Below, in pieces: positions 18,568 to 47,113 of a stretch of DNA of 64,000 bases; the stretch's first letter is position 1, and each line of letters opens with the position of its first letter. The notes beneath the pieces were generated by a model. The model did no database searches. It had not been told where the DNA came from and worked only from the letters and a program-made list of their open reading frames with translations. A program made the position numbers and the translations under genes. Source of the stretch: Chamaelirium japonicum (taxonomy: Eukaryota > Streptophyta > Magnoliopsida > Liliales > Melanthiaceae); assembly GCA_947650365.1 (NCBI GenBank), contig OX393552.1:16516775-16580774 (forward strand). Direction: 5' to 3'.

Positions 18568-19745
<1,178 letters not shown>

Positions 19746-21337: not shown

Positions 21338-21340
21338 AGT

Positions 21341-22417: not shown

Positions 22418-23222
22418 TGTGGGGGAAAATCTTCGTGCCGACCCGAAGATTCTCGCAGCACCAGTCAATTGAAGTCGAAGTTGATGTCGAAGATCGTTGA
22501 TCGATCTGTTGATTGAAGTCGAAGCCTTTTGATATGCAAACAGAGGAATGCAATCAGAGAAATTGTGACACGAGATGTGATCTCGGAGTTCAGCCGAAGC
22601 CTACGTCTCCGTGCTATAGGGAGCAACCCGAATTCACTAACACTTCTGTTGAAGTGACCTCGATAGGCCGAGTGTCACTGGAGATCTTCTAATCCCTTCG
22701 AAAGAGAAAAGAAGATCAACGAGAGATGGTAGATCGGAGTTAGAAAATCCCAGAGCTCTGGTTCTGGAAGTCAGATCTCAGAGTGGAAATCAGAATTCAG
22801 GATTTTAGTTTTTCGATCCTTTTACATTCGAAGGCACTGCTATTTATAGGATTCTCTGTTGGGGAATTCCGAGGTAAATGGCGGTTTCTGCTGCTGTATC
22901 TGGGGATCCTCCAGGCAGGACCGGTGGGTCCTGTGGTAGTCCTCGTGGGCCCACCAGGCAGGGCCGGTGGGTCCCGTGGTAATCCTCGTGGGCCCACCAG
23001 GCAGGGCCGGTGGGTCCCGTGGTAGTCCTCGTGGGCCCACCAGGCAGGGCCGGTGGGTCCCATGGTAATCCTCGTGGGCCCACCAGGCAGGGCCGGTGGG
23101 TCCCGTGGTAGTCCTCGTGGGCCCACCAGGCAGGGCCGGTGGGTCCCGTGGTAGTCCTCGTGGGCCCACCAAGCAGGACCGGTGGGTCCCGTGGTGGATA
23201 CATGCCAAAATTTGCACCCACA
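22418..23222 (-). repeat. 3' LTR of Tat copy A, with 43-bp internal repeats
   Basis: 805 bp, TGTGGG...CCCACA. About 22913-23215 is seven tandem units of 43 bp built on GGGCCCACCAGGCAGGGCCG. A TATA box (CCTATAAATAGC on the minus strand, about 22847-22858) gives the direction of transcription. The several long frames across the 43-bp array are repeat shadows. Confidence 0.95.
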
Positions 23223-23344
23223 GTTACCCCCTCCAAGTTAGCTAGAGTGCATTCTGGCTGGCTTGGACTTGGTGCAAAAAATAGCAACTTCCTGTTTTGA
23301 AAAACGGACATGAAGAAACTTATCGCATGTTAGAAAAAAAAAAG

Positions 23345-24475
23345 GGACCGATCGGTCAAATTTTGACCGATCGGTCAAATTTTGACCGATCGGTCAAAAT
23401 TCAACCGGTCAAGAATCGGGTGATCGGTCAAAAAACAGGGTTTTTTGACCGATCCAGTAGTAAATTTGACCGATCAGCTGAAATTTGACCGATCGGTTAA
23501 ATTTTGACCGATCGGTCATTTTTGATCGATCGGTCAAATTTTGACCGATCGGGCAAAATTCAACCGGTCAAGAATCGGGTGATCGGTCAAAAAACACGGT
23601 TTTTTGACCGATCCAGTAGAAATTTGATCGATCAGATAACTTTCGCCGATCGGACATGTTTGTCCGATCGGTGAAAAAATATCCGGTCAAGGTTCGAGTG
23701 ATCGGCAAAAAACCTTAGTTTTTTGCCAGATCCAGTAGAAATTTGACCGATCAGATAACTTTCGCCGATCGGACATGTTTGTCCGATCGGTGAAGAAATA
23801 TCCGGTCAAGGTTCGATTGATCGGCAAAAAACCTAGATTTTTTGCCAGATCCAGTAGAAATTTGACCGATTAGATAACTTTCGCCGATCGGACATGTTTG
23901 TCCGATCGGTGAAAAAATATCCGGTCAAGGTTCGAGTGATCGGCAAAAAACCTTGGTTTTTTGCCAGATCCAGTAGAAATTTGACCGATCAAATAACTTT
24001 CGCCGATCGGACATGTTTGTCCGATCGGTGAAAAAATATCCGGTCAAGGTTCGAGTGATCGGCAAAAAACCTTGGTTTTTTGCCAGATCCAGTAGAAATT
24101 TGACCGATCAAATAACTTTCGCCGATCGGACATGTTTGTCCGATCGGTGAAAAAATATCCGGTCAAGGTTCGAGTGATCGGCAAAAAACCTTGGTTTTTT
24201 GCCAGATCAAGTAGAAATTTGACCGATCAGATAACTTTCGCTGATCGGACATGTTTGTCCGATCGGTGAAAAAATATCCGGTCAAGGTTCGAGCGATCGG
24301 CAAAAAACCTTGGTTTTTTGCCAGATCCAGTAGAAATTTGACCGATCAAATAACTTTCGCCGATCGGACATGTTTGTCCGATCGGTAAAAAAATATCCGG
24401 TCAAGGTTCGAGTGATCGGCAAAAAACCTTGGTTTTTTGCCAGATCCAGTAGAAATTTGACCGATCAAAGTAAAG
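23345..24475. repeat. Palindromic tandem array of Tat copy A
   Basis: Two zones. 23345-23640 has scattered copies of the 18-bp palindrome TTTGACCGATCGGTCAAA. From about 23641 come seven units of exactly 119 bp, each holding CCGATCGGACA-tgtt-TGTCCGATCGG (a perfect 11-bp hairpin) and a second hairpin around CAAAAAACC/GGTTTTTTG. The array sits between the 3' LTR and the start of the antisense ORF. Tandem arrays in the 3' region are a known trait of Tat/Ogre elements and can seed satellite DNA. Confidence 0.93.
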
Positions 24476-24918
24476 TTTTGAACCTGCCCTTCAGAAAAGG
24501 TTTACTGCTTTGTTCTCCGATATTTTGGCAGAGTTTTGAACATTGATGGAGCTTGATTCTTCTTGTTTTGAATCCTTGGTTGGCTTGATGGTTGCTTTGA
24601 ACCGGCGGTCCGGTTTACCCAGACCGGTGGCTTGCTTGGACCGTTGGTTCATGTGGACCGGTAGGTCCGACGTTTCGCCTGGTTGCGACTGTTCGCCTGG
24701 TTTTGTGCTTGCTACGGATGGATGCCACGTGTACCTACAAAAACACACGATTTGATATGGTGAAGACACGTGTCTTCTCGATTTGCGCACCTGTTTTACC
24801 CTGGGTACAAAAGTTTTCACCGGCTGTCATTTCGCCTCACGCTTCCAAAATTTTTCGAAGTCCAGACCCTTGTTCTCTTGATTTCTGCTCTTGTTCTTGT
24901 TCTCGTTCGATCGGTCCA

Positions 24919-27661
24919 ATGGCTTCATCTGGCAGTTCGAAGAAGTCTGGTACTGCTCCCTCGAAGAGAAAGGGGAAGGAAATTGTCGAGGTTCAATCTC
25001 CTCCGAGGGGCCGTGGCAAAGGCAAGGCTGCTCTCGCTGAACTTGGCCAACTGGGCAAGAGGCACCAAGGGGTAGGGTTTGCTTCGGCGCCATCAAGGCC
25101 AGAGTTCATCCCTAAGGTCAAGTTTGTTCTGGGCCCTCTCATGCCCCTGACAGAGGAGACGGAGTACATGTACAATGTAGGTGGTGAGTTCACGGATACG
25201 AAGAGACAGAAATGGCAAGCACTGCTCTCTTTCTTCACAGAAGGGAAGGGGGCACAGCCTTCACTCCCTAGCATCCAGACGGCTTTCGGCATCGACAAGA
25301 AGACCGTCTTCACCAGCTATGCCAGCAACGAGAAGGTCATGGGAACCATCGTGACCATCGGCCAAATGAACTGCGGTCTGCGTTTACCGCTGCCACCCTT
25401 TGCGGCAAGGTTGCTGAATACATCTGGCCTTTGCCCGGGGCAGGTCACAGGAAACGCCTGGCGAATAATCTACGCATTCTGCCGCATGGAATCAGATTTC
25501 CAGGAAGATTTGAGGGCCTGCTACTCCAGTATCCCGGAAGGAGAAGTTGCCAGGATCGAACTTGGATACTTCTTCTTCCACTACAGATGGGCCTACAGAA
25601 GGGACAGCCCGTTCTACAATTTGACTGGAGTATCTCCGCTGCGCCCACTCACCGATACAGTCCCTTCGGACAAGTTGTATACGGATTGGCCAATCTCTGT
25701 ATCTGGCGCCTGGACATCCATGTCAGTGCCCGACACCCCCCGAGACAGCGTGCACGATGCCGTGAAGATGTACAGTGAGGGAGGCATCTTCGCCTGGAAT
25801 TCTGAGAGGGCTGGAGCCATAGACAACTTATTCCTCGAGCTGACTTGTGGAACGAGGTCGTGGAAGCAGTTCTCCAACTGCCCAGTGAGATACGGCAAGG
25901 CCAATCTCCTCCACCGATCAAAGGATAGATATGAGGATAACGAAGTCCTATATTCTGACTATGAAGAGGATCCCCACTCGGGCAAGGTCATTCGAAAGAT
26001 TCGGGCCGAGAAGAAGATCTACACTGCTAGGCGCCGATTGCCCACTTTTGACGAGAAACTGGTGCTCCAAAGAGGCCCAGTGAAGAAGAAACGAAAAACC
26101 CTTATCAAGCAACAGGAGGGTGAAGACCAAGGGAAGAAGATCGAAGAGGAAGAAGAAGGGAAGAAGAATGAAGAAGAAGAGACTGAGAATGCCAGCCACG
26201 ACAACAGTGGCAATGGCGAAGATGAGGACGCCGACGACGAGGATGATCCGTCATCGACTCCTTCTGGTGAAGATATCGAGAATGGGGGTGGTGAGGAAGA
26301 AATTCCTCCCACCCCCACTGTTGGTGTAACAGGAGAAGATTCAATTCCTGTTCCCATTGACAAGGCTAAGGCCCGTCAGATGGAAGGAGTTATGGACGCG
26401 GAAGGCGATGGCCAAAGAGTGGTTCCCGCCTACAAATTTGATGAATTGAAGAGGCCGACGCGCCTGATAATAAAGCTGTCGAGGAGTGGTGGGGTTGGAA
26501 GCAACCCCACACCCCTCGATCAGATTCCCCCCGACGTTCCTCGTATTGAAGGAGCAACAACGAGCGGGGGTGTTAAAGTAAAGCAACCCCCACTCCCCTC
26601 TCGCTCTCTACTTGAGGAGGTGGAAGCAATGGTGGCAGGGCTCAAGCCTGGCGGATTACAAGAGGAAGAGAGAGTCTCTCCTCCGAGGAATGCTTCCCCC
26701 CCTACTCATTTGGAGAGGGGAAGTCGAGTGGGTGATGGGGCTCCTCAACTTCAACCAGCGCCAACTCCTACTCAGGAGAAATCGACCCCTCAGGGTGGCT
26801 CTGATCGCCGGAAGGGCAAAGAGCCGAGGGTCGAAACCTCAGGTAATTGAACTAACTCGCCTTGAATGCCTTGTCTCTGAAGCTCGAAAATAATCTAACA
26901 CTTTGATCTCTTGTTGATTGTAGGTGCACCTGCTGGATTGACTCCGACAATAAGAAGCTTGGGTGACGTTGATATTAACCGCCCCACAGCTGCGATCAGG
27001 AAACTCATCAACCTCCCAGGGGCTACTCTGGATGAAGCTTTTGAGAGACTTGATCTGTTGGTAGGTGCATCTGCTCGATCAATCATCTGAGTTGTATCTT
27101 TATAATAATTCTAACTCTTTTGTTCTTTTGCAGAACTCAGCGGTTATGAATGTCGCGACCAAGCTCTCCATGAGGGCGGGAGCAAAAGAAGCTGTAGCTG
27201 AAATAAATCACTTGACCGCGGAGAGAGATGAGCTGAGAGAGCTCCTGACTTCGAAGAAAGCCTCTCTCAAAACCAAGATTGAGGAACTTTGCAAGGGGAA
27301 GCTGGAGATCAAGGGGCTGTAGAATCGTTGCGAGGCACAGAGTCACGAGCTCGAATCCTTGAAGACTCGACGCTCCAAGGTTGAGGAAGTGTCCTGTGGT
27401 CGCACCAGCGAGATTCAAGAGCTGAAGCAACAACTTGCTACCCAGCACGCTGTCTTCACTGCCAGAGAAGAGACTTCGAAGAAGGCATTGGAGCACGTGT
27501 TGTCTGAGTGCAAGGTTTACAAGGAGACAGCAGAGAAGGCGGCAGAAGCGCTCAGGGCCCATGTTTCCAGTGTCCGATCCTCCAAGGCATCAGTGGCGAG
27601 TAAAGCTCGTCCTGGATCTGAAGGGGAGAAGTCGCATGCGAAGAGCGTGGCCAAGCCCTGA
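24919..27661 (+). CDS. Antisense gene-like ORF of Tat copy A (gypsy-type transposon domain plus coiled coil)
   Basis: Antisense to the gag-pol of its own element. The main frame from Met 24919 (MASSGSSKKSG) to 26850 has a basic N-terminus, a folded region of about 350 residues (LRLPLPPFAARLL, then PGQVTGNAWRIIYAFCRM, then ELGYFFFHYRW) and a long acidic Glu/Asp/Lys tail. The NAW..I.AF motif recalls the Pfam 'putative gypsy type transposon' domain; that is recognition by eye. Two further segments (about 26923-27060 and 27134-27661, the latter a Glu/Lys-rich coiled coil) are set apart by short intervals bounded by GT and AG, in the same places in copy B, so the gene may be spliced. It converges on pol. 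Antisense ORFs between pol and 3' LTR are known in Tat elements such as maize Grande. Function unknown. Treat as part of the element; copy A looks slightly damaged. Confidence 0.72.
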
Positions 27662-27885
27662 GACTTTTCTTCTTCTTCGTTGTTGTACTTGTAAATTTTT
27701 GAAATGTAACAGCTCCTTGTATCTGACATATTTTGATAATAAAAGATCTTCTTGGTGTTTGAAAATTGAATGTCTCTTGAATTGAATGCCTTTGACTATC
27801 ATGATCTCAATAGCATTAGAATAGATACAATCTTTTGAATGTAACTTTGAAAATTGGACTTGAATTCGTATAACACTTGAATGTG

Positions 27886-28110
27886 AGGGGTTGAGTCGCA
27901 ACTCAAGCACCCAAACCTGTTAAACGATGTAGAAATTGATTGAAATTGAATATTGAAATTTGAAAGTCAGTTTAACATTTGCCAGTAAGGGGTTGAGTCG
28001 CAACTCTAACACCCAAACTTGTTAAGACTTGATAACTTGAATGCGGTCAGTTTTTAACATTTGCTAGTAAGGGGTTGAGTCGCAACTCTAACTCCCAAAC
28101 TTGTTAAAAG
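27886..28110. repeat. Three hairpin repeats between convergent frames (copy A)
   Basis: GGGGTTGAGTCGCAACTC occurs three times (near 27888, 27990 and 28073), each with the stem TTGAGT-cgca-ACTCAA or a variant of it and followed by ACCCAAAC(C/T)TGTTAA. The block lies between the end of the antisense gene and the end of pol, which point toward each other. It could be a shared 3'-end signal for both transcripts; that is inference. Confidence 0.6.
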
Positions 28111-28226
28111 ACCTGGTAACTTGAATATGGATAACTCGAAACTGCTTCAGAACTTGAATTGAAAAATTGAACAGTTGCATATTTGAACACTTTGAAAGAG
28201 AACTTTATTCATCACAAAAATTTCCA

Positions 28227-31200
28227 TCATGGGTAGAACATCTTAAGGTGTCTAGAATTCCAAGCTCGAGGCAATCTATCTCCTTCTGGTGTGATCAGTC
28301 TGTAAGAACCTTTGCTTCCTACTGATTCAATGATATATGGACCTTCCCAGTTGGGAGCAAGCTTTCCACTGCTGTGCTCTTTGGTATTGTAGAAAACTGC
28401 TCTGAGAACTAAACTACCCACTGGGAACTGTCTCTTATGGACTTTCTTGTCATAGGCTCTTTTGATCTTCTGTTGATACTTGGCTACACGAAGAGAAGCT
28501 TGATCTCGTAGTTCTTCAGAGAAGTCTAGATCATTGATCCGAAGTTCTTCATTGACTCCTTCTTCAACAGCTTTGGTCTTCAAAGTACTTGATATATTTT
28601 CTGTTGGGAGTATTGCTTCCGATCCATATGTTAGACGAAAGGGTGAGAACCCTGTGGATCTTCTCGGAGTTGTGCGATACCCCCAAAGAACTTCAGGTAG
28701 GACTTGCTCCCACAATCCTTTCTTGTCGTTGAGTTTCTTCTTGAGTATATCAAGTATAGCTCTGTTTGAGGCTTCAGCTTGACCATTGCATTGAGAATAT
28801 CTTGGAGTTGAATAGAATAGCTTGATACCGTTGTTCAGACAGAACTCTCGGAATTTGTCTGAGTCAAATTGAGCTCCATTGTCAGCAACAAGAACTTGAG
28901 GTGTGCCAAACCTTGAGAAGATGTTGTGCCGAATGAATTTGATCACTTCGTCGTCAGTCTCTCGAAAGAGGGGCACAGCTTCAACCCATTTGGTGAAGTA
29001 ATCAGTAGCCAGCAGTAGATATTTCTTCTTGCTTGGAGTTGGAGGGAAAGGACCCAAGAAATCTAACCCCCATTGATGGAAAGGCCAGGGGCTTGATAAT
29101 TGATGAAGTTCATCTGCAGGGAGATGGATAGCTCGAGCGTGTCGTTGGCAAGGCTCGCATCTTTGAACGACTTGTTGAGCATCCCTTGCCATTGTTGGCC
29201 AGTAGTACCCTTGTAGCTTCGTCTTGGCTTCAAGAGATCTTCCCCCCGAATGATTTCCACAAGCTCCAGAGTGGATATCAATCAGGATTGACTGTGCTTG
29301 CTCTGGACCAAGGCACTTGAGCAACATCCCGTTGTGAGATTTGAAGTACAGATCTTCTCCTTGAATAGTGTAGCATGGGAGCTTCCTTTGAAGTCTTCGG
29401 GCTTGATTTGGATCTTCTGGCATTTTGCCATGTTTGAAGAAGTCAAGAATTGGTCGTCTCCAATCTTCAAGCTGATCTCCACCCCCAGATCCTTTTGTAG
29501 TAGTAAGGATCTGTTGATCGGGGATGGTCTTGGGCATTTCTTGATAATTGATCTGTACTTGCCTTCCTCCAAGCGAGTCTCCCAGAACTGAGGCAGCATT
29601 AGCTAAGGCATCTGCTTCTCGGTTTTCTGCTCTTGGAATTTGAACGAACTCAATTGTAGTAAAACGTTGTTGAAGACGTCGTACTAAAGCTAAGTAGAGT
29701 TGCATTCTTTCTTCACGAGCTGTGTACTCTCCATTGATTTGCCTTATGATCAACTGGGAGTCGCTGTAGATGATGATTCGATCTACCCCCAGGGATTCTG
29801 CCATTTCGAGTCCGGAAATGAGTGCTTCGTATTCAGCTTCGTTGTTGGTGGCATTAAATCCAAGGAGAGTGGCCTTCTGGAGATGATCAAGTTCGGGGGA
29901 TATTAAGACTATCCCAGTTCCCGAACTGATCGAACTTGATGCTCCATCAGTATAAAGCTTCCAAGGAGGAGTTGCAGCAATAACTTCAAGACTTGGATCA
30001 ATTTTTGTTGCAAGATTGATCGGAGGATTATCCTCATCTTCCAAGCGCATGTCGACATCTTCTTCCCAAATGATGGGGTCTTCAACTGGAAAGTCAGCTA
30101 GAAAATCAGCAATTGCTTGACCTTTGATAGAAGTGTGAGATTCGAATTGAATCCCCAGAGCACTCATTTCGATCACCCATTTGGTCATTCGACCAGCTCG
30201 ACCAGCTTTGTCAATGATATCTTTGAGCGAGTGTTCTGAAATGACAGTGATCTGGTGAGAGACGAAATATGGTTGGAGACGACGCGATGCAGTGAGCAAG
30301 GCCAGGATGACTTTCTCAGTTTTCGAATAGCGAGTTTCAGCCGGAAGAAGAGTGTGGCTGATGTAGTAGACTGGATGTTCGACGCCTTCTCTTCTACTGA
30401 CTAAGACCGCGCTGATTGCTTGATCGGTCACGGCCAGATAGAGCCACAAGTCTTCTTTTGGTAATGGAGCAGTCAGGATGGGAGCTTGCACCAGATATTT
30501 CTTGATGCTTTGAAATGCCTCTTCACATATTGGACTCCAGCCGGATGTATCCGCCTTTCGTAGTTTGTCGAAGAGGGGTTTGCATTTGTCGGAAGATTTT
30601 GAAATGAATCGATTGAGTGCTGCTAACCTTCCAGTGAGGCGTTGAACTTCTTTTCGATTTGTAGGTGAAGGCATATTGATGATGGCTCGAATTTGATCAG
30701 GATTGGCTTCAATACCCCTCCTAGTCACAAGATGACCCAGGAATTTGCCAGATTGAACTCCGAAAGCGCACTTGGCTGGATTGAGCTTCATTCAATACTT
30801 TCGAAGGACTTGGAAGGTTTCAGCCAGATCAGATAGATGTTTACTCCGAACGGAACTCTTGGTGAGGAGATCATCGACATATACTTCGACGTTGCGACCA
30901 ATCTGATCTTCGAACATTTTGGTGACTAGCCTTTGATAGGTGGAACCAGCATTTTTGAGGCCGAATGGCATGACATTGTAGCAATAAAGGCCTCGGCTAG
31001 TCACAAAACATGTCTTCTCTTGATCATCAGCGTGGAGCGGAATTTGATTATATCCAGAATACCCATCCATGAAAGACAATAGCTCGTGGCCAGCAGTGGC
31101 GTCGACGAGTCTATCTATCCTTGGCATGGGAAAAGGATCTTTGGGGCAAGCCTTGTTGAGATTGGTAAAGTCGATGCAGACTCTGACTTTCCCATTCTTC

Positions 31201-31454
31201 TTTGGTACAGCCACTATATTAGAGATCCAAGTTGGATACTCTACTTCTCGGATGAATCCGGCTGCGAGTAGCTTGGTAATTTCTTCTTGAACAGCAACTT
31301 GCAGCTCTGGTCGAATGGTGCGAGGCTTTTGCTTGACAGGCTTTACCTCTTCTTTGATCGCAAGTCGGTGACAAGCGTCATCTGGATTGATACCAGGCAT
31401 GTCTTCGAAACACCAAGCAAAGACGTCGATATTGGACTGGAGGAAGGATACCAT
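28227..31454 (-). CDS. Pol of Tat copy A (RT, RNase H, second RNase H, integrase)
   Basis: Fossil retroelement pol on the minus strand. RT: VPKKNGKVRVCIDFTNLNKA and the catalytic YVDDLL box. RNase H follows in the usual place (VTDQAISAVLV). A second, archaeal-type RNase H (KLYTDGASSS, then NNEAEYEALISGLEMAESLG, then YSDSQLI) marks the Tat lineage. Integrase has the H-H-C-C zinc site (ending RCEPCQRHA), DFLGPFP, VLVADNGAQFDSDKF and the final acidic residue in GQAEASNRA. No chromodomain. It is close to whole, with about one break. RT to integrase order is Ty3/Gypsy. Confidence 0.93.
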
Positions 31455-31607
31455 GTCTTGCGCTTCTGCGTCGCTAAGACCGGTACCAATAAATGTTTGT
31501 CGAGGGAGATCTCTGCTGCCTATGTTGATCGGGATGATTTCTTCAATTGAAGGTGATGCTTCCCATTCGATTGGTGGAGGTTCGGTCAGCGGAATCTCCT
31601 TTGATTG

Positions 31608-34076
31608 CTATTTGGAAGAGGGACCAGCTTCATCTCGTGGCCGCTTTAGAGGAGCAATGTTAATCTTTCGATCTGTCTTTGCCGCAGCAGCTTCACAAGA
31701 CCTTCCAGCTTGCTGATCGCCTCGCATGCAGACAATGCCTTCTCCAGTTGCAAACTTGAGCAGTTGATGGTAAGAGGAGGAGATGGCATTGATCTGATGG
31801 AGGAATGGTCGCCCAAGAATGGCGTTGTAGCTAGACATTCCTTCGACGATTGCAAACCTCACCGAGACTCGAGTCTCTCGGCTGAGGTCGATGGTAAATC
31901 TGGATTCGCCCACTGTGATGCTTTGTTCACCATTGAAGCCGGTGATCACAGTCGGGACGACGTCGAGGCTTTGATACTTATGTCCCAGACGTTTGAAACA
32001 GTCTGAGAACATTATGTCGATGGAGCTTCCGGTGTCGATGAGGATCCGGTTGACAGTGCTGCCGTCGATAATGAGTTTCAAGACCAGGGGGTCTCGATGT
32101 GGAGTATGGACTCCTTGAAGATCAGTGTCGTTGAAGACTATGGATGGCCAAGCAAGACCTTCGATGGGCTTCTCGATCCAGGTATCCTCTTTGCTCGCAG
32201 TAGAACGAACGTGGAAGATGCGTCGAACTTGGCGATCCACCTCTTTCCCAGTCAGACTTTGATTGTGCAATGTTCCATGAATACCAAAAACATTGGCATT
32301 CACAGAGATAGTTTGCCGGTTAGAGGAGATTTGATGTATCCAACACACTTCTTTCCCCTTTGCAGAGGTCCGATGTTGATTGTGTCCGCCTCTAACGAAC
32401 TCTTGAAGATGGCCTTCTCGCAATAGGTCTTCAAGATGGAATTTCAGCCGAAAACACCGATCGGTGGAATGGCCATGACTTCGATGGAAGTCGCAGTAGA
32501 CTGTCTTGTCTGCTGTGAATTTGGAATTCGGCTGAAGAGGATTAGGCCTCCGAACGAACTCTTCATGTTGAATGCGGTCGAGTATCTGTTCGACCGGCAT
32601 ATTCCACTCGGTGAAAGTGGTCTTCGTTGGAGATCGACGTCCATCATTCTTTGATCTTTTGTTGGCCGGAGGGGCTGCTGCTTCAGCGTTGTGAGTCTTT
32701 GCAGCATACTTAGGAGCTTCTCTTTCAGCAGGCCTTCTCTTAGTTTCTCGCCCTTTCCGAGCGACTTGATCGTCTTCCACCTCAATCTCTCTTTGAATTC
32801 GGTCAAACATTGCTCCCAGAGAAGGAGGGGGATTGCGGATGAAGTCATTGTAGATGTGTAGATCGAAGCGGAGAGCGTTCTGGAAAGCCAACATGATGGC
32901 TTCATCATCCAGATGTCTTCCAGAGAGAGCAGCATGCTCGTTGCGAAACCTCCTCGTGAAGCTGCGAAGAGTCTCGTCTGCACCCATCCTCAGTCGGTAG
33001 AGAGAGTCGAGTTTCTTTTCTGGCTTTAGATTGAGTTGATAGTGCTGCACAAAGAGGTTAGCCAAAACACCGAATTGGGTGATGGACCCAGCTCGGAGAT
33101 TGTGATACCAGTCGAGCGAAGGCTCATCGAGACTTCCCGCGAAGGTGCGGCAGAGCACGTTGTTTTCCTCTTCGTGTGGTGTTAGAGCTTGCTTGAAAGC
33201 AAGTATATGGAGGCTTGGATCTCCTCTAATACAGTTGAATTTGGGGAGGATAGGAGTTCTCCATCCTCTTGGAAAGGTGGTCTCGAAGAGACTTCGATGT
33301 AGTGGCCCGGCAGAGGAGTAACCGTCCCTACGACCATGTCCTCGACCTAGAGGTGGGTCAAGAGGCAAGATCGCAAGGTCTTGCTCTGGCATTGAAGTGT
33401 TTGCCGGTCGAAGTCGGTGTCGAAGGTCCGATCCAAGTCCACGTTGGAGTGGAATGGAAGGGGAGACTCTACTCTTTGAAGGAGCGCCTTTCATTTGGTG
33501 CTTCCTTGGCATGTTGAGCTTCGATGGTGCTCTTTTGTCGCAGTTACGACCAGATGAGGATTGGGAGGACTCGTCTTCAAGACGATCCCAGACACTCTGC
33601 TTCCAAGGAGCAGCAGAGGGAGTTGGGTCGCGTCGAATCCTCTCGAGAGCATCAGTGCCCATTGACCTCCGTTGTTCGGAGTGAATTGAATGTCGAGGAG
33701 GATCAACCCTCTCACTTGCGGAGGGGATCGGAATAGCAATTCCAGCTTCGGAAGCTGCCTTCTTCAGAGCATCCCTCTCAGCAGTGAGGGTGGCGTTTTG
33801 CTTCGCCAATTGGAGTAGTTGGAAATCGATTGCAGAGATCTGGTAAGTCGATGGAGGATCTTCAGCAGGAGCAAGGACAGTCTGCCCAATTGATTGATGA
33901 GGATGAGGGGCGATCGGTCGATCGACTGATCTCCCGCTTCCTGAATGAACCCCCATCTCGGGGACAGCAAGGGGCTGCCCGAAATTGAGCCTTTGACTCA
34001 TTGAACGAGTCTCAGGACGAGGTTGATGTTGAGTGTTACTTCCTTCTGGTTGACCCTGGTGTTTGGTTCTCGCCAT
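31608..34076 (-). CDS. Gag-protease of Tat copy A
   Basis: A frame of about 820 residues from MARTKHQGQPEGSN. The N-terminal part is polar and low in complexity. The capsid region (FKQALTPHEEENNVLCRTFA, then LDWYHNLRAGSITQF, then SFTRRFRNEHAALSGRHLDD) is Retrotrans_gag. A zinc-binding stretch (YCDFHRSHGHSTDRCFRLK) follows, then an aspartic protease with ILIDTGSSIDIMF and AILGRPFLH. It is an intact-looking frame of a Tat element, directly upstream of pol in the element's direction. Confidence 0.93.
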   Translation of the reverse strand: MARTKHQGQPEGSNTQHQPRPETRSMSQRLNFGQPLAVPEMGVHSGSGRSVDRPIAPHPHQSIGQTVLAPAEDPPSTYQISAIDFQLLQLAKQNATLTAERDALKKAASEAGIAIPIPSASERVDPPRHSIHSEQRRSMGTDALERIRRDPTPSAAPWKQSVWDRLEDESSQSSSGRNCDKRAPSKLNMPRKHQMKGAPSKSRVSPSIPLQRGLGSDLRHRLRPANTSMPEQDLAILPLDPPLGRGHGRRDGYSSAGPLHRSLFETTFPRGWRTPILPKFNCIRGDPSLHILAFKQALTPHEEENNVLCRTFAGSLDEPSLDWYHNLRAGSITQFGVLANLFVQHYQLNLKPEKKLDSLYRLRMGADETLRSFTRRFRNEHAALSGRHLDDEAIMLAFQNALRFDLHIYNDFIRNPPPSLGAMFDRIQREIEVEDDQVARKGRETKRRPAEREAPKYAAKTHNAEAAAPPANKRSKNDGRRSPTKTTFTEWNMPVEQILDRIQHEEFVRRPNPLQPNSKFTADKTVYCDFHRSHGHSTDRCFRLKFHLEDLLREGHLQEFVRGGHNQHRTSAKGKEVCWIHQISSNRQTISVNANVFGIHGTLHNQSLTGKEVDRQVRRIFHVRSTASKEDTWIEKPIEGLAWPSIVFNDTDLQGVHTPHRDPLVLKLIIDGSTVNRILIDTGSSIDIMFSDCFKRLGHKYQSLDVVPTVITGFNGEQSITVGESRFTIDLSRETRVSVRFAIVEGMSSYNAILGRPFLHQINAISSSYHQLLKFATGEGIVCMRGDQQAGRSCEAAAAKTDRKINIAPLKRPRDEAGPSSK

Positions 34077-34202
34077 TCAGAGTGCGAAGGGTACAACGAG
34101 ATTGCCAACGTCCGATCAGTTGTCTGATCAACCGAGGGGGCGAGGAAGTTTGGCTATTGATCTGGTAGTCGAAGTAGAGAGGACACGGCTTCTCGCTCGG
34201 AT

Positions 34203-34221
34203 CCCACAGACGGCGCCAAAC
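34203..34221 (-). other. Primer-binding site region of Tat copy A
   Basis: Next to the LTR end at 34222 the minus strand reads GTTTGGCGCCGTCTGTGGG. The TTTGGCGCCGT core is the primer site usual in Tat/Athila elements. The same sequence follows the 5' LTR of copy B at 35257. Confidence 0.8.
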
Positions 34222-35256: not shown

Positions 35257-35401
35257 GTTTGGCGCCGTCTGTGGGATCCGAGCGAGAAGCCGTGTCCTCT
35301 CTACTTCGACTACCAGATCAATAGCCAAACTTCCTCGCCCCCTCGGTTGATCAGACAACTGATCGGACGTCAGCAATCTCGTTGTACCCTTCGCACTCTG
35401 A

Positions 35402-37870: not shown

Positions 37871-38023
37871 CAATCAAAGGATATTCCGCTGACCGAACCT
37901 CCACCAATCGAATGGGAAGCATCACCTTCAATTGAAGAAATCATCCCGATCAACATAGGCAGCGGAGATCTCCCTCGACAAACATTTATTGGTACCGGTC
38001 TTAGCGACGCAGAAGCGCAAGAC

Positions 38024-41000
38024 ATGGTATCCTTCCTCCAGTCCAATATCGACGTCTTTGCTTGGTGTTTCGAAGACATGCCTGGTATCAATCCAGATGA
38101 CGCTTGTCACCGACTTGCGATCAAGGAAGAGGTGAAGCCTGTCAAGCAAAAGCCACGCACCATCCGCCCAGAGCTGCAAGTTGCTGTTCAAGAAGAAATT
38201 ACCAAGCTACTCGCAGCCGGATTCATCCGAGAAGTAGAGTATCCAACTTGGATCTCTAATATAGTGGCTGTTCCAAAGAAGAATGGGAAAGTCAGAGTCT
38301 GCATCGACTTTACTAATCTCAACAAGGCTTGCCCCAAAAATCCTTTTCCCATGCCAAGGATAGATAGACTCGTCGACGCCACTGCTGGCCACGAGCTATT
38401 GTCTTTCATGGATGGGTATTCCGGATATAATCAAATTCCGCTCCACGCTGATGATCAAGAGAAGACATGTTTTGTGACTAGCCGAGGCCTTTATTGCTAC
38501 AATGTCATGCCATTCGGCCTCAAAAATGCTGGTTCCACCTATCAAAGGCTAGTCACCAAAATGTTCGAAGATCAGATTGGTCGCAACGTCGAAGTATATG
38601 TCGATGATCTCCTCACCAAGAGTTCCGTTCGGAGTAAACATCTATCTGATCTGGCTGAAACCTTCCAAGTCCTTCGAAAGTATCGAATGAAGCTCAATCC
38701 AGCCAAGTGCGCTTTCGGAGTTCAATCTGGCAAATTCCTTGGTCATCTTGTGACCAGGAGGGGTATTGAAGCCAATCCTGATCAAATTTGAGCCATCATC
38801 GATATGCCTTCACCTACAAATCGAAAAAAAGTTCAACGCCTCACTGGAAGGTTAGCAGCACTCAATCGATTCATTTCAAAATCTTCCGACAAATGCAAAC
38901 CCCTCTTCGACAAACTACGAAAGGCGAATACATCCGGCTGGAGTCCAATCTGTGAAGAGGCATTTCAAAGCATCAAGAAATATCTGGTGCAAGCTCCCAT
39001 CCTGACTGCTCCATTGCCAAAAGAAGACTTGTGGCTCTATCTGGCCGTGACCGATCAAGCAATCAGCGCGGTCTTAGTCAGTAGAAGAGAAGGCGTCGAA
39101 CATCCAGTCTACTACATCAGCCACACTCTTCTTCCGGCTGAAACTCGCTATTCGAAAACTGAGAAAGTCATCCTGGCCTTGCTCACTGCATCGCGTCGTC
39201 TCCAACCATATTTCGTCTCTCACCAGATTACTGTCATTTCAGAACACTCGCTCAAATATATCATTGACAAAGCTGGTCGAGCTGGTCGAATGACCAAATG
39301 GGTGATCGAAATGAGTGCTCTGGGGATTCAATTCGAATCTCGCACTTCTATCAAAGGTCAAGCAATTGCTGATTTTCTAGCTGACTTTCCAGTTGAAGAC
39401 CCCATTATTTGGGAAGAAGATGTCGACATGCGCTTGGAAGATGAGGATAATCCTCCGATCAATCCTGCAACAAAAATTGATCCAAGTCTTGGAGTTATTG
39501 CTGCAACTCCTCCTTGGAAGCTTTATACTGATGGAGCATCAAGTTCGATCGGTTCGGGAACTGGGATAGTTTTAATATCCCCCGAACTTGATCATCTCCA
39601 GAAGGCCACTCTCCTTGGATTTAGTGCCACCAACAACGAAGCTGAATACGAAGCACTCATTTCCGGACTCGAAATGGCAGAATCCCTGGGGGTAGATCGA
39701 ATCATCATCTATAGCGACTCCCAGTTGATCATAAGGCAAATCAATGGAGAGTACACAGCTCGTGAAGAAAGAATGCAACTCTACTTAGCTTTAGTACGAC
39801 GTCTTCAACAACGTTTTACTACAATTGAGTTCGTTCAAATTCCAAGAGCAGAAAACCGAGAAGCAGATGCCTTAGCTAATGCTGCCTCAGTTCTGGGAGA
39901 CTCGCTTGGAGGAAGGCAAGTACAGATCAATTATCAAGAAATGCCCAAGACCATCCCCGATCAACAGATCCTTACTACTACAAAAGGATCTGGGGGTGGA
40001 GATCAGCTTGAAGATTGGAGACAACCAATTCTTGACTTCTTCAAACATGGCAAAATGCCAGAAGATCCAAATCAAGCCCGAAGACTTCAAAGGAAGCTCC
40101 CATGCTACACTATTCAAGGAGAAGATCTGTACTTCAAATCTCACAACGGGATGTTGCTCAAGTGCCTTGGTCCAGAGCAAGCACAGTCAATCCTGATTGA
40201 TATCCACTCTGGAGCTTGTGGAAATCATTCGGGGGGAAGATCTCTTGAAGCCAAGACGAAGCTACAAGGGTACTACTGGCCAACAATGGCAAGGGATGCT
40301 CAACAAGTCGTTCAAAGATGCGAGCCTTGCCAACGACACGCTCGAGCTATCCATCTCCCTGCAGATGAACTTCATCAATTATCAAGCCCCTGGCCTTTCT
40401 ATCAATGGGGGTTAGATTTCTTGGGTCCTTTCCCTCCAACTCCAAGCAAGAAGAAATATCTACTGCTGGCTACTGATTACTTCACCAAATGGGTTGAAGC
40501 TGTGCCCCTCTTTCGAGAGACTGACGACGAAGTGATCAAATTCATTCGGCACAACATCTTCTCAAGGTTTGGCACACCTCAAGTTCTTGTTGCTGACAAT
40601 GGAGCTCAATTTGATTCAGACAAATTCCGAGAGTTCTGTCTGAACAACGGTATCAAGCTATTTTATTCAACTCCAAGATATCCTCAATGCAATGGTCAAG
40701 CTGAAGCCTCAAACAGAGCTATACTTGATATACTCAAGAAGAAACTCAACGACAAGAAAGGATTGTGGGAGCAAGTCCTACCTGAAGTTCTTTGGGGGTA
40801 TCGCACAACTCCGAGAAGATCCACAGGGTTCTCACCCTTTCGTCTAACATATGGATCGGAAGCAATACTCCCAACAGAAAATATATCAAGTACTTTGAAA
40901 ACCAAAGCTGTTGAAGAATGAGTCAATGAAGAACTTCGGATCAATGATCTAGACTTCTCTGAAGAACTACGAGATCAAGCTTCTCTTCGTGTAGCTCAGT

Positions 41001-41251
41001 ATCAACAGAAGATCAAAAGAGCCTATGACAAGAAAGTCCACAAGAGACAGTTCCCAGTGGGTAGTTTAGTTCTCAGAGCAGTTTTCTACAATACCAAAGA
41101 GCACAGCAGTGGAAAGCTTGCTCCCAACTGGGAAGGTCCATATATCATTGAATCAGTAGGAAGCAAAGGTTCTTACAGACTGATCACACCAGAAGGAGAT
41201 AGATTGCCTCGAGCTTGGAATTCTAGACACCTTAAGATGTTCTACCCATGA
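38024..41251 (+). CDS. Pol of Tat copy B
   Basis: Same layout as copy A: RT with YVDDLL (about 38600), RNase H, a second archaeal-type RNase H (KLYTDGASSSIGSG, about 39520), integrase zinc site and DDE core (VLVADNGAQFDSDKF, about 40590), and a C-terminal part ending HLKMFYP. It faces the antisense ORF across about 590 bp. Nearly whole, with a couple of breaks. Confidence 0.92.
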
Positions 41252-41374
41252 TGTAAATTTTTGTGATGAATAAAGTTCTCTTTCAAAGTATTCAAATATG
41301 CAACTGTTCAATTTTTCAATTCAAGTTCTGAAGCAGTTTCAAGTTATCCATATTCAAGTTACCAGGTCTTTTAA

Positions 41375-41600
41375 CAAGTTTGGGAGTTAGAGTTGCGACT
41401 CAACCCCTTACTAGCAAATGTTAAAAACTGACCGCATTCAAGTTATCAAGTCTTAACAAGTTTGGGTGTTAGAGTTGCGACTCAACCCCTTACTGGCAAA
41501 TGTTAAACTGACTTTCAAATTTCAATATTCAATTTCAATCAATTTCTACATCGTTTAACAGGTTTGGGTGCTTGAGTTGCGACTCAACCCCTCACATTCA
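41375..41600. repeat. Three hairpin repeats between convergent frames (copy B)
   Basis: GAGTTGCGACTCAACCCC occurs three times (near 41391, 41472 and 41575), the mirror of the block at 27886-28110 in copy A. It lies between the ends of pol and the antisense ORF. Confidence 0.6.
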
Positions 41601-41841
41601 AGTGTTATACGAATTCAAGTCCAATTTTCAAAGTTACATTCAAGTCCAATTTTCAAAGTTACATTCAAAAGATTATATCTATTCTAATACTATTGAGATC
41701 ATGATAGTCAAAGGCATTCAATTCAAGAGACATTCAATTTTCAAACACCAAGAAGGTCTTTTATTATCAAAATATGTCAGATACAAGGAGCTGTTACATT
41801 TCAAAAATTTACAAGTACAACAACGAAGAAGAAGAAAAGTC

Positions 41842-44584
41842 TCAAGGCTTGGCCACACTCTTCCCATGCGACTTCTCCCCTTCAGATCCAGGACGAGCTT
41901 TACTCGCCACTGATGCCTTGGAGGATCGGACACTGGAAACATGGGCCCTGAGCGCTTCTGCCGCCTTCTCTGCTGTCTCCTTGTAAACCTTGCACTCAGA
42001 CAACGCGTGCTCCAGTGCCTTCTTCGAAGTCTCTTCTTTGGCAGTGAAGACAGCGTACTGGGTAGCAAGTTGTTGCTTCAGCTCTTGGATCTCGATGGTG
42101 CGACCACAGGACACGTCCTCAACCTTGGAGAGTCGAGTCTTCAAGGATTCGAGCTCGTGACTCTGTGCCTCGCAACGATCCTGCAGCCCCTTGATCTCCA
42201 GCTTCCCCTTGCGAAGTTCCTCAATCTTGGCTTTGAGAGAGGCTTTCTTCGAAGTCAGGAGCTCTCTCAGCTCATCTCTCTCCGCGGTCAATTGATTTAT
42301 TTCAGCTACAGCTTCTTTTGCTCCCGCCCTCATGGAGAGCTTGGTCGCAACATTCATAACTGCTGAGTTCTGCAAAAGAACAAAAGAGTTAGAATTATCA
42401 TAAAGATACAACTCAGATGATTGATCGAGCAGATGCACCTACCAACAGATCAATTCTTTCAAAAGCTTCATCCAGAGTAGCCCCTGGGAGGTTGATGAGT
42501 TTCCTGATCGCAGCTGTGGGGCGGTTGATATCAACGTCACCCAAGCTTCTTATTGTCGGAGTCAATCCAGCAGGTGCACCTACAATCAACAAGAGATCAA
42601 AGTGTTAGATTATTTTCGAGCTTCAGAGACAAGGCATTCAAGGCGAGTTAGTTCAATTACCTGAGGTTTCGATCTTCGGCTCTTTGCCCTTCCTGCGATC
42701 AGAGCCACCCTGAGGGGTCGACTTCTCCTGAATCGGGGTTGGCGCTGGTTGAGGTGGAGGAGCCCCATCACCCACTCGACTTCCCCTCTCCAAATGAGTA
42801 GGGGAGGAAGCATTCCTCAGAGGAGAGACTCTCTCTTCCTCTTGTGGTCCGCCAGGCTTGAGCCCTGCCACCATTGCTTCCACCTCCTCAAGTAGAGAGC
42901 GAGAGGGGAGTGGGGGTTGCTCTACTTCAACACCCCCGCTCGTTGTTGCTCCTTCAATACGAGGAACGTCGGGGGGAATCTGATCGAGGGGTGTGGGGTT
43001 GCTTCCAACCCCACCACTCCTCGACAGCTTTATTATCAGGCACGTCGGCCTCTTCAATTCATCAAATTTATAGGCGGGAACCACTCTTTGGCCATCGCCT
43101 TCCGCGTCCATAACTCCTTCCATCTGACGGGCCTTAGCCTCGTCAATGGGAACAGGAATTGAATCTTCTCCTGTTACACCAACAGTGGGGGTGGGAGGAA
43201 TTTCTTCCTCACCACCCCCATTCTCGATATCTTCACCAGAAGGAGTCGATGACGGATCATCCTCGTCGTCGGCGTCCTCATCTTCGCCATTGCCACTGTT
43301 GTCGTGGCTGGCATTCTCAGTCTCTTCTTCTTCATTCTTTTTCCCTTCTTCTTCCTCTTCGATCTTCTTCCCTTGGTCTTCATCCTCCTGTTGCTTGATA
43401 AGGGTTTTTCGTTTCTTCTTCACTGGGCCTCTTTGGAGCACCAGTTTCTCATCAAAAGTGGGCAATCGGCGCCTAGCAGTGTAGATCTTCTTCTCGGCCC
43501 GAATCTTTCGAATGACCTTGCCCGAGTGGGGATCCTCTTCATAGTCAGAGTATAGGACTTCGTTGTCCTCATATCTATCCTTTGATCGGTGGAGGAGATT
43601 GGCCTTGCCGTATCTCACTGGGCAGTTGGAGAACTGCTTCCACGACCTCGTGCCACAAGTCAGCTCGAGGAATAAGTTGTCTATGGCTCCAGCCCTCTCA
43701 GAATTCCAGGCGAAGATGCCTCCCTCACTGTACATCTTCACGGCATCGTGCACGCTGTCTCGGGGGGTGTCGGGCACTGACATGGATGTCCAGGCGCCAG
43801 ATACAGAGATTGGCCAATCCGTATACAACTTGTCCGAAGGGACTGTATCGGTGAGTGGGCGCAGCGGAGATACTCCAGTCAAATTGTAGAACGGGCTGTC
43901 CCTTCTGTAGGCCCATCTGTAGTGGAAGAAGAAGTATCCAAGTTCGATTCTGGCAACTTCTCCTTCCGGGATACTGGAGTAGCAGGCCCTCAAATCTTCC
44001 TGGAAATCTGATTCCATGCGGCAGAATGCGTAGATTATTCGCCAGGCGTTTCCTGTGACCTGCCCCGGGCAAAGGCCAGATGTATTCAGCAACCTTGCCG
44101 CAAAGGGTGGCAGCGGTAAACGCAGACCGCAGTTCATTTGGCCGATGGTCACGATGGTTCCCATGACCTTCTCGTTGCTGGCATAGCTGGTGAAGACGGT
44201 CTTCTTGTCGATGCCGAAAGCCGTCTGGATGCTGGGGAGTGAAGGCTGTGCCCCCTTCCCTTCTATGAAGAAAGAGAGCAATGCTTGCCATTTCTGTCTC
44301 TTCGTATCCGTGAACTCACCACCTACATTGTACATATACTCTGTCTCCTCTGTCAGTGGCATAAGCGGACCCAGAACAAACTTCACTTTGGGGATGAACT
44401 CTGGCCTTGATGGCGCTGAGGCAAACCCTACTCCTTGGTGCCGCTTGCCCAGTTGGCCGAGTTCAGTGAGAGCAGCTTTGCCTTTGCCACGGCCCCTCGG
44501 AGGAGATTGAACCTCGACAATTTCCTTCCCCTTTCTCTTCGAGGGAGCAGTACCAGACTTCTTCGAACTGCCAGATGAAGCCAT
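41842..44584 (-). CDS. Antisense gene-like ORF of Tat copy B
   Basis: Same antisense gene as in copy A. Main frame 44584 down to 42653 (Met in MASSGSSKKSG), with the same folded region (PGQVTGNAWRIIYAFCRM, ELGYFFFHYRW) and acidic tail. The coiled-coil segment (about 42366-41842, AEINQLTAERDELRELL) is open here. The short GT...AG-bounded intervals sit at the same places as in copy A. Both copies keep long open frames in spite of their position outside gag-pol, which suggests the protein matters to the element. Function unknown; the nearest resemblance seen is the 'putative gypsy type transposon' domain. Confidence 0.72.
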
Positions 44585-45029
44585 TGGACCGATCGAACGA
44601 GAACAAGAACAAGAGCAGAAATCAGGAGAACAAGGGTCTGGACTTCGAAAAATTTTGGAAGCGTGAGGCGAAATGACAGCCAGAAAAAACTTTTGTACCC
44701 AGGGTAAAACAGGTGCGCAAATCGAGAAGACACGTGTCTTCACCATATCAAATCGCGTGTTTTTTGTAGGTACACGTGGCATCCATCCGAAGCAAGCGCA
44801 AAACCAGGCGAACAGTCGCGACCAGGCGAAACATCGGACCTACCGGTCCACATGAACCAACGGTCCAAGCAAGCCACCGGTCTGGGTAAACCGGACCGCC
44901 GGTTCAAAGCAACCATCAAGCCAACCAAGGATTCAAAACAAGAAGAATCAAGCTCCATCAATGTTCAAAACTCTGCCAAAATATCGGAGAACAAAGCAGT
45001 AAACCTTCTCTGAAGGGCAGGTTCAAAAC

Positions 45030-46320
45030 TTTACTTTGATCGGTCAAATTTCTACTGGATCTGGCAAAAAACCGAGGTTTTTTGCCGATCGCTCGAACCT
45101 TGACCGGATATTTTTTCACCGATCGGACAAACATGTCCGATCGGCGAAAGTTATTTGATCGGTCAAATTTCTACTGGATCTGGCAAAAAACCAAGGTTTT
45201 TTGCCGATCACTCGAACCTTGACCGGATATTTTTTCACCGATCGGACAAAACATGTCCGATCGGCGAAAGTTATTTGATCGGTCAAATTTCTACTGGATC
45301 TGGCAAAAAACCAAGGTTTTTTGCCGATCACTCGAACCTTGACCGGATATTTTTTCACCGATCGGACAAACATGTCCGATCGGCGAAAGTTATCTGATCG
45401 GTCAAATTTCTACTTGATCTGGCAAAAAACCAAGGTTTTTTGCCGATCACTCGAACCTTGACCGGATATTTTTTCACCGATCGGACAAACATGTCCGATC
45501 GGCGAAAGTTATCTGATCGGTCAAATTTCTACTGGATCTGGCAAAAAACTAAGGTTTTTTGCCGATCGCTCGAACCTTGACCGGATATTTTTTCACCGAT
45601 CGGACAAACATGTCCGATCGGCGAAAGTTATCTGATCGGTCAAATTTCTACTTGATCTGGCAAAAAACCAAGGTTTTTTGCCGATCACTCGAACCTTGAC
45701 CGGATATTTTTTCACCGATCGGACAAACATGTCCGATCGGCGAAAGTTATCTGATCGGTCAAATTTCTACTGGATCTGGCAAAAAACCAAGGTTTTTTGC
45801 TGATCGCTCGAACCTTGACCGGATATTTTTTCACCGATCGGACAAACATGTCCGATCGGCGAAAGTTATTTGATCGGTCAAATTTCTACTGGATCTGGCA
45901 AAAAACCAAGGTTTTTTGCCGATCACTCGAACCTTGACCGGATATTTTTTCACCGATCGGACAAACATGTCCGATCGGCGAAAGTTATCTGATCGGTCAA
46001 ATTTCTACTGGATCGGTCAAAAAACCGTGTTTTTTGACCGATCACCCGATTTTTGACCGGTTGAATTTTGCCCGATCGGTCAAAATTTGACCGATCGGTC
46101 AAAAATGACCGATCGGTCAAAATTTAACCGATCGGTCAAAATTCCAGCTGATCGGTCAAATTTACTACTGGATCAGTCAAAAAACCCTGTTTTTTGACCG
46201 ATCACCCGATTCTTGACCGGTTGAATTTTGACCGATCAGTCAAAATTTGACCGATCGGTCAAAATTTGACCGATCGGTCAAATTTGACCGATCGGTCCAA
46301 ATTGACCGATCAGTCCCTTT
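45030..46320. repeat. Palindromic tandem array of Tat copy B
   Basis: Eight units of about 119 bp (45030 to about 46010) with CCGATCGGACA-aaca-TGTCCGATCGG, then an 18-bp-palindrome zone (TTTGACCGATCGGTCAAA) to 46320. It is the same array as in copy A with one more unit. It lies upstream of the antisense ORF and inside the 3' LTR. Confidence 0.93.
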
Positions 46321-46436
46321 TTTCTCTAACATGCGATAAGTTTCTTCGTGTCCGTTTTTCAAAACAGGAAGTTGCTATTTTTTGCACCAAGTCCAAGCCA
46401 GCCAGAATGCACTCTAGCTAACTTGGAGGGGGTAAC

Positions 46437-47113
46437 TGTGGGTGCAAATTTTGGCATGTATCCACCACGGGACCCACTTGCCCTGCCTGGTGGGCCCACG
46501 AGGACTACCACGGGACCCACCTGCCCTGCCTGGTGGGCCCACGAGGACTACCACGGGACCCACCGGCCCTGCCTGGTGGGCCCACGAGGACTACCACAGG
46601 ACCCACCGGTCCTGCCTGGAGGATCCCCAGATACGGCAGCAGAAACCGCCATTTACCTCGGAATTCCCCAACAGAGAATCCTATAAATAGCAGTGCCTTC
46701 GAATGTAAAAGGATCGAAAATCTAAAAATCCTGAATTCTGATTTCCACTCTGAGATCTGACTTTCAGAACCAGAGCTCTGGGATTTTCTAACTCCGATCT
46801 ACCATCTCTCGTTGATCTTCTTTTCTCTTTCGAAGGGATCAGAAGATCTCCAGTGACACTCGGCCTATCGAGGTCACTTCAACAGAAGTGTTAGTGAATT
46901 CGGGTTGCTCCCTATAGCACGGAGACGTAGGCTTCGGCTGAACTCCGAGATCACATCTCGTGTCACAATTTCTCTGATTGCATTCCTCTGTTTGCATATC
47001 AAAAGGCTTCTACTTCAATCAACAGATCGATCAACGATCTTCGACATCAACTTCGACTTCAATTGACTGGTGCTGCGAGAATCTTCGGGTCGGCACGAAG
47101 ATTTTCCCCCACA
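46437..47113 (+). repeat. 3' LTR of Tat copy B
   Basis: 677 bp, with four 43-bp units against five in the 5' LTR; otherwise about three base differences. Ends CCCCCACA, followed by the target duplication GGTAG. Confidence 0.95.

What the first reader, a model, noticed from the sequence alone, without database searches (positions are those of the whole stretch)
22418..47113. Two young Tat elements head to head form an almost 25 kb near-palindrome
Copy A (minus) and copy B (plus) of the same family abut at 34536/34537. Because copy B landed in copy A's 5' LTR, the two internal regions are inverted repeats with arms of about 12 kb and a central unpaired stretch of only about 0.4 kb. Transcription from the flanking chromovirus LTR, or across the centre, would give a very long hairpin RNA. 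Inverted duplications of this kind are known to trigger silencing of a whole family (maize Mu killer is the classic case). This could be a natural silencing locus for this Tat family.
Basis: partly seen in the sequence, partly recalled or inferred. Interest (0 to 1): 0.75.

Follow-up and report, generated by a model that had tools for sequence, protein, structure and literature searches.

The report
Self-nested Retand retrotransposons forming a palindrome
A young plant retrotransposon jumped backwards into the promoter end of a close relative, leaving a 25-kb near-mirror image that could make double-stranded RNA; the structure is well supported and of a kind already described, and whether it silences the family is untested.

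Summary
Three LTR retrotransposons are nested, each with a perfect 5-bp target-site duplication: a chromovirus-type element C (+), a Tat/Retand-like element A (-) inside it, and a second one, B (+), inside A's 5' LTR. The arms are 22418-34536 and 34942-47113, 405 bp apart. A and B internals differ at 207 of 10,999 aligned bases, against 3 differences between the LTRs of each copy: two separate insertions, not a duplication or read artefact.

A runs on to 47608. B landed downstream of A's one TATA box (47234, minus strand), so A's promoter half is whole and points through antisense B into sense A. That hairpin geometry needs no read-through from C, whose LTRs have no sense TATA[AT]A. B's 3' LTR also faces A's promoter, about 0.5 kb away.

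Silencing is not shown. Six AATAAA motifs lie in the antisense-B stretch, LTR poly(A) sites are unknown, and no RNA data were available. Antisense self-nesting as a possible hairpin source is already published for EVD in Arabidopsis. Ordinary genesis, plausible consequence: a new member of a known kind.

The parts
19952..53102 (+).
   Evidence: TSD and termini; LTR pair 48 ts + 5 tv in 1,382 sites; RT, RNase H, integrase and Tf2-like SH3 domains at 48413-51535
22418..47608 (-). Copy A, Retand-like element split by B; TSD GCCAT 22413-22417 / 47609-47613
22418..23222 (-). A 3' LTR (805 bp)
34222..34536 (-). Inner piece of A 5' LTR (last 315 bp), no TATA[AT]A match
   Evidence: 2 mismatches in 315 against the end of B's 5' LTR
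47114..47608 (-). Outer piece of A 5' LTR (first 495 bp): U3, TATA at 47234, inferred TSS about 47202, reading left into B
   Evidence: 2 differences of 495 from A's 3' LTR and TATA position; TSS is inferred as TATA + 32
34537..47113 (+). Copy B, inserted in A's 5' LTR; TSD GGTAG 34532-34536 / 47114-47118; LTRs 34537-35256 (720 bp) and 46437-47113 (677 bp)
34537..34941 (.). Central 405-bp spacer (first 405 bp of B 5' LTR): loop of the potential hairpin
   Evidence: fold of 34387-35091 minus strand, -502.2 kcal/mol against -253.4 +/- 8.7 for 20 shuffles
28227..34076 (-). A gag-pol region: gag and protease, RT, RNase H, integrase in three stop-to-stop pieces
   Evidence: Pfam; stop positions
35660..40921 (+). 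B gag-pol region, same domain order, three stop-to-stop pieces
   Evidence: Pfam; stop positions
24601..26850 (+). A antisense ORF (749 aa stop to stop) with weak Transposase_28 match
   Evidence: PF04195 E 1.7e-4, 22.2 bits, below Pfam cutoff 26.2
42653..44839 (-). B antisense ORF (728 aa stop to stop) with weak Transposase_28 match
   Evidence: PF04195 E 1.4e-4, 22.5 bits, below Pfam cutoff 26.2; dN/dS 0.19 between A and B over 700 shared codons
23540..24467 (-). 119-bp tandem array of A, 7.8 units
45037..46121 (+). 119-bp tandem array of B, 9.1 units
46682..46689 (+). TATAAATA of B 3' LTR, facing A's outer promoter (inferred TSSs 488 bp apart)

Best explanation
Two members of one Retand-like (Tat) family inserted one after the other. 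A entered an older chromovirus-type element in antisense, then B entered A's 5' LTR in the opposite direction, about 89 bp downstream of A's inferred transcription start. Shown: geometry, order, TSDs, young age, separate source copies, the undivided first 495 bp of A's 5' LTR with its TATA box outside B, and face-to-face TATA boxes of A (outer piece) and B (3' LTR). Inferred: if A's promoter fires, RNA runs through antisense B, then through A's R/U5 piece, and perhaps on through sense A. That gives up to a 315-bp LTR stem if the RNA ends in the R/U5 piece, and up to a 12-kb stem if it runs on. B's 3' LTR firing toward it would also give about 0.5 kb of overlapping dsRNA. Dicer products from such RNA could feed LTR methylation of the family in cis and in trans. 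Most likely today the locus is methylated like other nested copies and is a weak or occasional source of small RNA rather than the family's master silencer. My estimates: structure and genesis 0.97; some dsRNA made at this locus in some tissue or past generation about 0.5; family-level silencing trigger about 0.15.
For: Three perfect nested 5-bp TSDs with TG..CA ends. LTR pairs: A 2 of 495 and 1 of 315, B 3 of 677 plus one 43-bp unit. Between copies: 15 of 719 (A3-B5), 12 of 676 (A3-B3), 207 of 10,999 internal. So A and B came from different source copies. TATAAATA occurs at 6 places on both strands of the 64-kb window and 4 of these are the four Retand LTR positions. A's lies at 47234, in the outer piece; the inner piece has no TATA[AT]A. 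The central 705 nt fold 28 sd below 20 shuffles. 7,499 of 10,976 24-mers of A's internal region occur exactly in B's. Antisense nesting of the EVD retrotransposon into itself, with both hairpin and convergent-promoter routes proposed, is reported in PMC11624286 (passages).
Against: No transcript, small-RNA or methylation data. In the B-antisense stretch 6 AATAAA motifs occur on the strand that A's promoter would transcribe, about 2.2 expected from 100 first-order Markov simulations, so the RNA may end before the centre. A's R/U5 piece may itself carry the LTR poly(A) site, now 12.7 kb from the start and no longer shielded by closeness to the promoter (inference). TSS placement is inferred from the TATA box alone. 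In the EVD case the antisense nested copy was found in only one of two silenced lines, its siRNA output was not tested, and LTR siRNAs there were mainly 24 nt, whereas hairpins usually give several sizes (PMC11624286, passages). Young nested elements in plants can be silenced by ordinary Pol IV RdDM without any hairpin (recalled).
Confidence: 0.8

Rival explanations
1. Inert nested insertion: same genesis, but the palindrome has no special RNA output and is silenced and decaying like any other nested copy. (This rival disputes only the RNA step, so its odds overlap with the best explanation.)
For: Both copies carry private in-frame stops in gag-pol. AATAAA motifs could cut antisense transcripts. 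Nesting is common: 1,491 pairs analysed in 12 plant genomes (PMC6911290, abstract passage).
Against: The promoter half of A's 5' LTR, with TATA, is undivided and correctly placed to transcribe the inverted arms; both copies are very young.
Confidence: 0.45
2. Assembly or read artefact, such as a palindromic read from a missed hairpin adapter, or a wrong join of two copies.
For: Long inverted repeats with short spacers are a known class of long-read artefact (recalled); no reads were available.
Against: Artefact arms would be near identical. Here they differ by 207 of 10,999 plus 5 gaps and by tandem-array length. Each of three elements has its own perfect TSD. LTR divergence is lower within each element than between them, though in the inner 315 bp alone the contrast is slight: 1 difference from A's 3' LTR against 2 from B's 5' LTR.
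Confidence: 0.03
3. Inverted duplication or fold-back rearrangement of one element rather than transposition.
For: The product resembles an inverted duplication.
Against: TSDs, complete LTR termini, and between-copy divergence about 4-5 times the within-copy LTR divergence.
Confidence: 0.01
4. Read-through from the chromovirus 5' LTR is the main source of hairpin RNA.
For: C's 5' LTR is upstream on the + strand and reads toward both arms.
Against: No TATA[AT]A in sense in C's LTRs; C's LTR K2P is 0.040; 5 AATAAA in antisense A; B's 5' LTR would be met in sense and could terminate the RNA (inference).
Confidence: 0.08

Closest known systems
[quoted passage not shown] PMC11624286, passages seen)
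   Same: Same-family LTR element inserted in antisense into an older copy; hairpin from the older copy's promoter or convergent transcription proposed as a trigger of LTR siRNAs; not proven there either.
   Different: There the opposed LTRs were reported 2,562 and 1,942 bp apart, and EVD is Copia (recalled). Here LTR lies inside LTR (distance 0), arms are about 12 kb, and the copies are Retand-like, in a genome sequence of unknown source.
Mu killer (Muk), maize (PMC3440606, start of abstract in the listing; PMC2725412, passages)
   Same: An inverted arrangement of transposon sequence able to give a long hairpin RNA.
   Different: Muk is a partial inverted duplication from the MuDR DNA transposon, its ~4-kb hairpin proposed to come from read-through of a flanking gene, and it silences MuDR. 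Here there are two whole-length retroelements, the first copy's own promoter half is retained, and no silencing is shown.
Retand elements (PMC11963269, abstract and section 11 part 1 of 2)
   Same: LTR and internal sizes, gag-AP-RT-RH-INT order, antisense ORF with PF04195, tandem arrays between pol and 3' LTR.
   Different: No structural difference found in the features compared; these copies carry private in-frame stops.
Nested LTR retrotransposons and autoinsertions (PMC6911290, passages and section 7)
   Same: Nesting into the same family is documented, for Retand in Lotus japonicus among others; 5-bp TSDs dominate.
   Different: LTRs are among the least hit regions there; here the hit is in the 5' LTR.

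Membership tests
Retand lineage (Tat, Ty3/gypsy) | LTR 315-1,194 bp and internal region 7,380-12,869 bp (ranges in PMC11963269) | tested here: met
   LTRs 805, 720 and 677 bp; internals 10,999 and 11,180 bp
Retand lineage (Tat, Ty3/gypsy) | gag, protease, RT, RNase H, integrase in gypsy order | tested here: met
   Pfam hits in both copies
Retand lineage (Tat, Ty3/gypsy) | Antisense ORF with TRP28 (PF04195) between pol and 3' LTR | tested here: met
   Both copies; E 1.7e-4 and 1.4e-4, but 22.2 and 22.5 bits are below Pfam's curated 26.2, so a weak match
Retand lineage (Tat, Ty3/gypsy) | pol-3'LTR region 2,933-6,566 bp, often with tandem arrays | tested here: met
   5,004 bp (A) and 5,515 bp (B) from the ORF and LTR ends; 119-bp arrays
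Retand lineage (Tat, Ty3/gypsy) | RT phylogeny places it in Retand | not tested
   No reference RT set was at hand
Mu killer-like silencing locus | Long inverted repeat of transposon sequence | tested here: met
Mu killer-like silencing locus | A promoter that reads through both arms | tested here: inconclusive
   A's TATA at 47234 is present and correctly aimed; activity and poly(A) use unknown
Mu killer-like silencing locus | Hairpin RNA and siRNAs from the locus | not testable with these tools
   No RNA data
Mu killer-like silencing locus | Dominant silencing of the family in trans | not testable with these tools
   Needs segregating plants
Antisense same-family nested insertion | Younger copy inserted with own TSD, antisense, in an older copy | tested here: met
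   GGTAG TSD within A's 5' LTR

The most novel reading that the evidence does not exclude
A self-promoted 'Retand killer': because B sits just downstream of A's start site, each firing of A's own LTR promoter would make antisense-B plus sense-A RNA. An ordinary transposition into a relative would thus have turned the family's promoter into its own hairpin-RNA driver. The more the family is transcriptionally active, the more trigger RNA it makes, a built-in negative feedback that needs no host gene promoter.
Probability: 0.15. Interest if true: 0.7.

Novelty: new member of a known kind. Interest (0 to 1): 0.38.

Why it matters
How silencing of an active plant transposon is first installed is described as poorly understood (PMC11624286, start of abstract in the listing). 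An antisense self-insertion just downstream of the older copy's start is a precise, searchable geometry. It can be counted genome-wide, and its small-RNA output compared with that of solitary copies. This locus is a clean specimen: supported by TSDs, young, LTR within LTR, promoter half kept. If such loci prove to be siRNA hot spots, they would help explain why silencing sets in at arbitrary times and copy numbers.

Tried and rejected
Rejected: palindromic-read artefact and inverted duplication (TSDs; arms 1.9% apart). Gene conversion between the arms: the longest perfect run, 376 bp, is not exceptional (P 0.126 in 5,000 uniform simulations). Differences are uneven along the internal region (chi2 53.3 on 21 df, P 1.3e-4), as is dS (36/519 in gag-pro against 19/693 in RT-INT, P 7e-4). 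Selection and mixed ancestry could explain this, but local conversion is not excluded. Methylation footprint as a sign of hairpin silencing: transitions, counted on whichever copy has the C, are 50 CG, 29 CHG and 91 CHH, against 998, 957 and 3,279 such cytosines in A's internal region. That is a CG excess only. Most of these changes should predate the insertions, since the LTR pairs differ far less, so the test is uninformative.

Led nowhere: other copies of the family could not be sought, since genome search 'own' was unanswered five times. The other DNA collections hold viral, metagenomic, prokaryotic, phage or plasmid records, were judged unlikely to hold plant retrotransposons and were not searched. 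The source species is unknown. Paper searches used: 8 of 10; none of the listed titles and abstract starts showed a Retand or Tat head-to-head silencing locus, and only openly licensed papers are covered. PMC12312487 (passages) concerns head-to-head VANDAL21 DNA transposons and did not bear on this.
Full report
OBSERVATION. The window contains a 12-kb inverted repeat with a 405-bp spacer. The longest ungapped arms are 27835-34536 and 34942-41643, 99% complementary. BLASTN joins 23346-34536 to 46118-34942 at 97.4% identity over 11,218 columns. There is no N in the window.

ANATOMY. Three LTR retrotransposons are nested, each with TG..CA ends and a perfect 5-bp TSD. C (+), 19952-53102, TSD CCTTG; A (-), 22418-47608, TSD GCCAT; B (+), 34537-47113, TSD GGTAG. 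B's TSD lies inside A's 5' LTR, which is thereby cut into an inner piece (34222-34536, the last 315 bp) and an outer piece (47114-47608, the first 495 bp).

IDENTITY. Both A and B encode gag, aspartic protease, RT, RNase H and integrase, and, antisense between pol and 3' LTR, an ORF of 749 or 728 aa (stop to stop) with a weak Transposase_28 (PF04195) match, E 1.7e-4 and 1.4e-4, below Pfam's curated cutoff. [quoted passage not shown] A and B fit all of these. No RT tree was made. C carries RT, RNase H, integrase and a Tf2-like SH3 domain.

AGE AND ORIGIN. LTR pairs: A 2 differences of 495 plus 1 of 315; B 3 of 677 and one 43-bp repeat unit; C 53 of 1,382. Between copies: 15 of 719 (A3-B5), 12 of 676 (A3-B3), 207 of 10,999 internal with 5 gaps. 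With a rate of 1.3e-8 (recalled), A and B are each about 0.15 My old, their common ancestor about 0.7-0.8 My and C about 1.5 My. The copies are therefore separate insertions of related elements. The within-element closeness of the LTRs rests mostly on the outer part. In the inner 315 bp, A's 5' LTR differs by 1 from its own 3' LTR and by 2 from B's 5' LTR. Both copies share a stop at the end of the gag-protease frame. Besides it, A has one private in-frame stop in the RT region. B has one in the same region, and a second near the start of gag that counts only if translation begins upstream of it. So neither is likely to be autonomous now.

Each Retand LTR has one TATAAATA. The motif occurs at 6 places on both strands of the window, and 4 are these. 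In A's split 5' LTR it is at 47234 on the minus strand, in the outer piece; the inner piece has no TATA[AT]A. With a start about 32 bp downstream (inference), A's RNA begins near 47202 and meets B 89 bp later. A's promoter half is thus undivided but now reads B's 3' LTR, interior and 5' LTR in antisense, then A's own R/U5 and interior in sense. That is a hairpin gene with its own retroelement promoter. Moreover B's 3' LTR promoter (TATA 46682, +) faces it, inferred starts 488 bp apart, so convergent dsRNA is possible as well. If RNA crosses the centre but ends in A's R/U5 piece, the stem is up to 315 bp with 2 mismatches; the maximal one is about 12 kb. The central 705 nt fold at -502.2 kcal/mol against -253.4 +/- 8.7 in 20 shuffles. 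Of 10,976 24-mers in A's interior, 7,499 occur exactly in B's.

AGAINST. No RNA evidence exists here. In the antisense-B path there are 6 AATAAA motifs, about 2.2 expected in 100 Markov simulations, against 1 in each sense strand, about 3 expected. A transcript may well stop before the centre. The LTR's poly(A) site is unknown and could lie in A's R/U5 piece. A missing TATA match does not prove a dead promoter.

COMPARISON. [quoted passage not shown] Much closer is the antisense nested EVD insertion in Arabidopsis, for which the authors propose hairpins from the older copy's transcription and convergent transcription. They state that they did not test whether the locus makes siRNAs, found it in one of two silenced lines, and note mainly 24-nt LTR siRNAs, unlike typical hairpins (PMC11624286, passages). 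Same-family nesting is documented, with LTRs among the least hit regions (PMC6911290). In wheat, small RNAs match the top layers of nested elements more than lower layers, P 0.047 (PMC2996936, passages). Hairpin siRNA loci can have strong natural effects, such as Teosinte Pollen Drive (PMC11390486, passages). Hence: a new member of a known kind, with an unusually complete geometry. In eight paper searches the listings showed no Retand or Tat locus of this form.

VERDICT. Structure well supported, genesis ordinary, mechanism plausible and sharpened, silencing role unproven.

Noticed in passing
24601-26850 (+) and 42653-44839 (-): The antisense ORF of the Retand copies looks constrained: between A and B 29 synonymous and 19 non-synonymous differences over 700 shared codons, dN/dS 0.19 (Fisher P 2.5e-8), while the five other frames of the same stretch give 0.44-1.12. 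gag-pro gives 0.11 and RT-INT 0.23. The function is called unknown in PMC11963269.
   Followed up: partly
22911-23195, 34564-34762, 46464-46619, 47297-47581: 43-bp tandem units in the LTR upstream of the TATA box vary in number: TRF gives 6.6 in both LTRs of A, 4.6 and 3.6 in the two LTRs of B. One unit changed since B's insertion or during its reverse transcription; it may act on promoter strength.
   Followed up: no
22418-34536 and 34537-47113: AATAAA is scarce in the sense strand of both Retand copies (1 each, about 3 expected) and in excess in antisense (5 and 6, about 2 expected).
   Followed up: no
LTRs of A and B: At one LTR site both 5' LTRs share one base and both 3' LTRs share another (alignment); perhaps recurrent deamination, unexplained.
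   Followed up: no
1-8198: Remains of a Copia-type element on the minus strand (gag match at 3703-4143, retroviral SH3 match at 1980-2435) between repeats 1-467 and 7732-8198 at 85% identity; it may run on past the window's left edge.
   Followed up: partly
16335-16793: zf-RVT match (E 1.2e-15): LINE remnant or host reverse-transcriptase-like gene.
   Followed up: no
19077-19305 and 59035-59134: Long microsatellites: CT x40 next to TA x75, both pure, ending about 650 bp left of element C, and TA x50 at 96% match.
   Followed up: no
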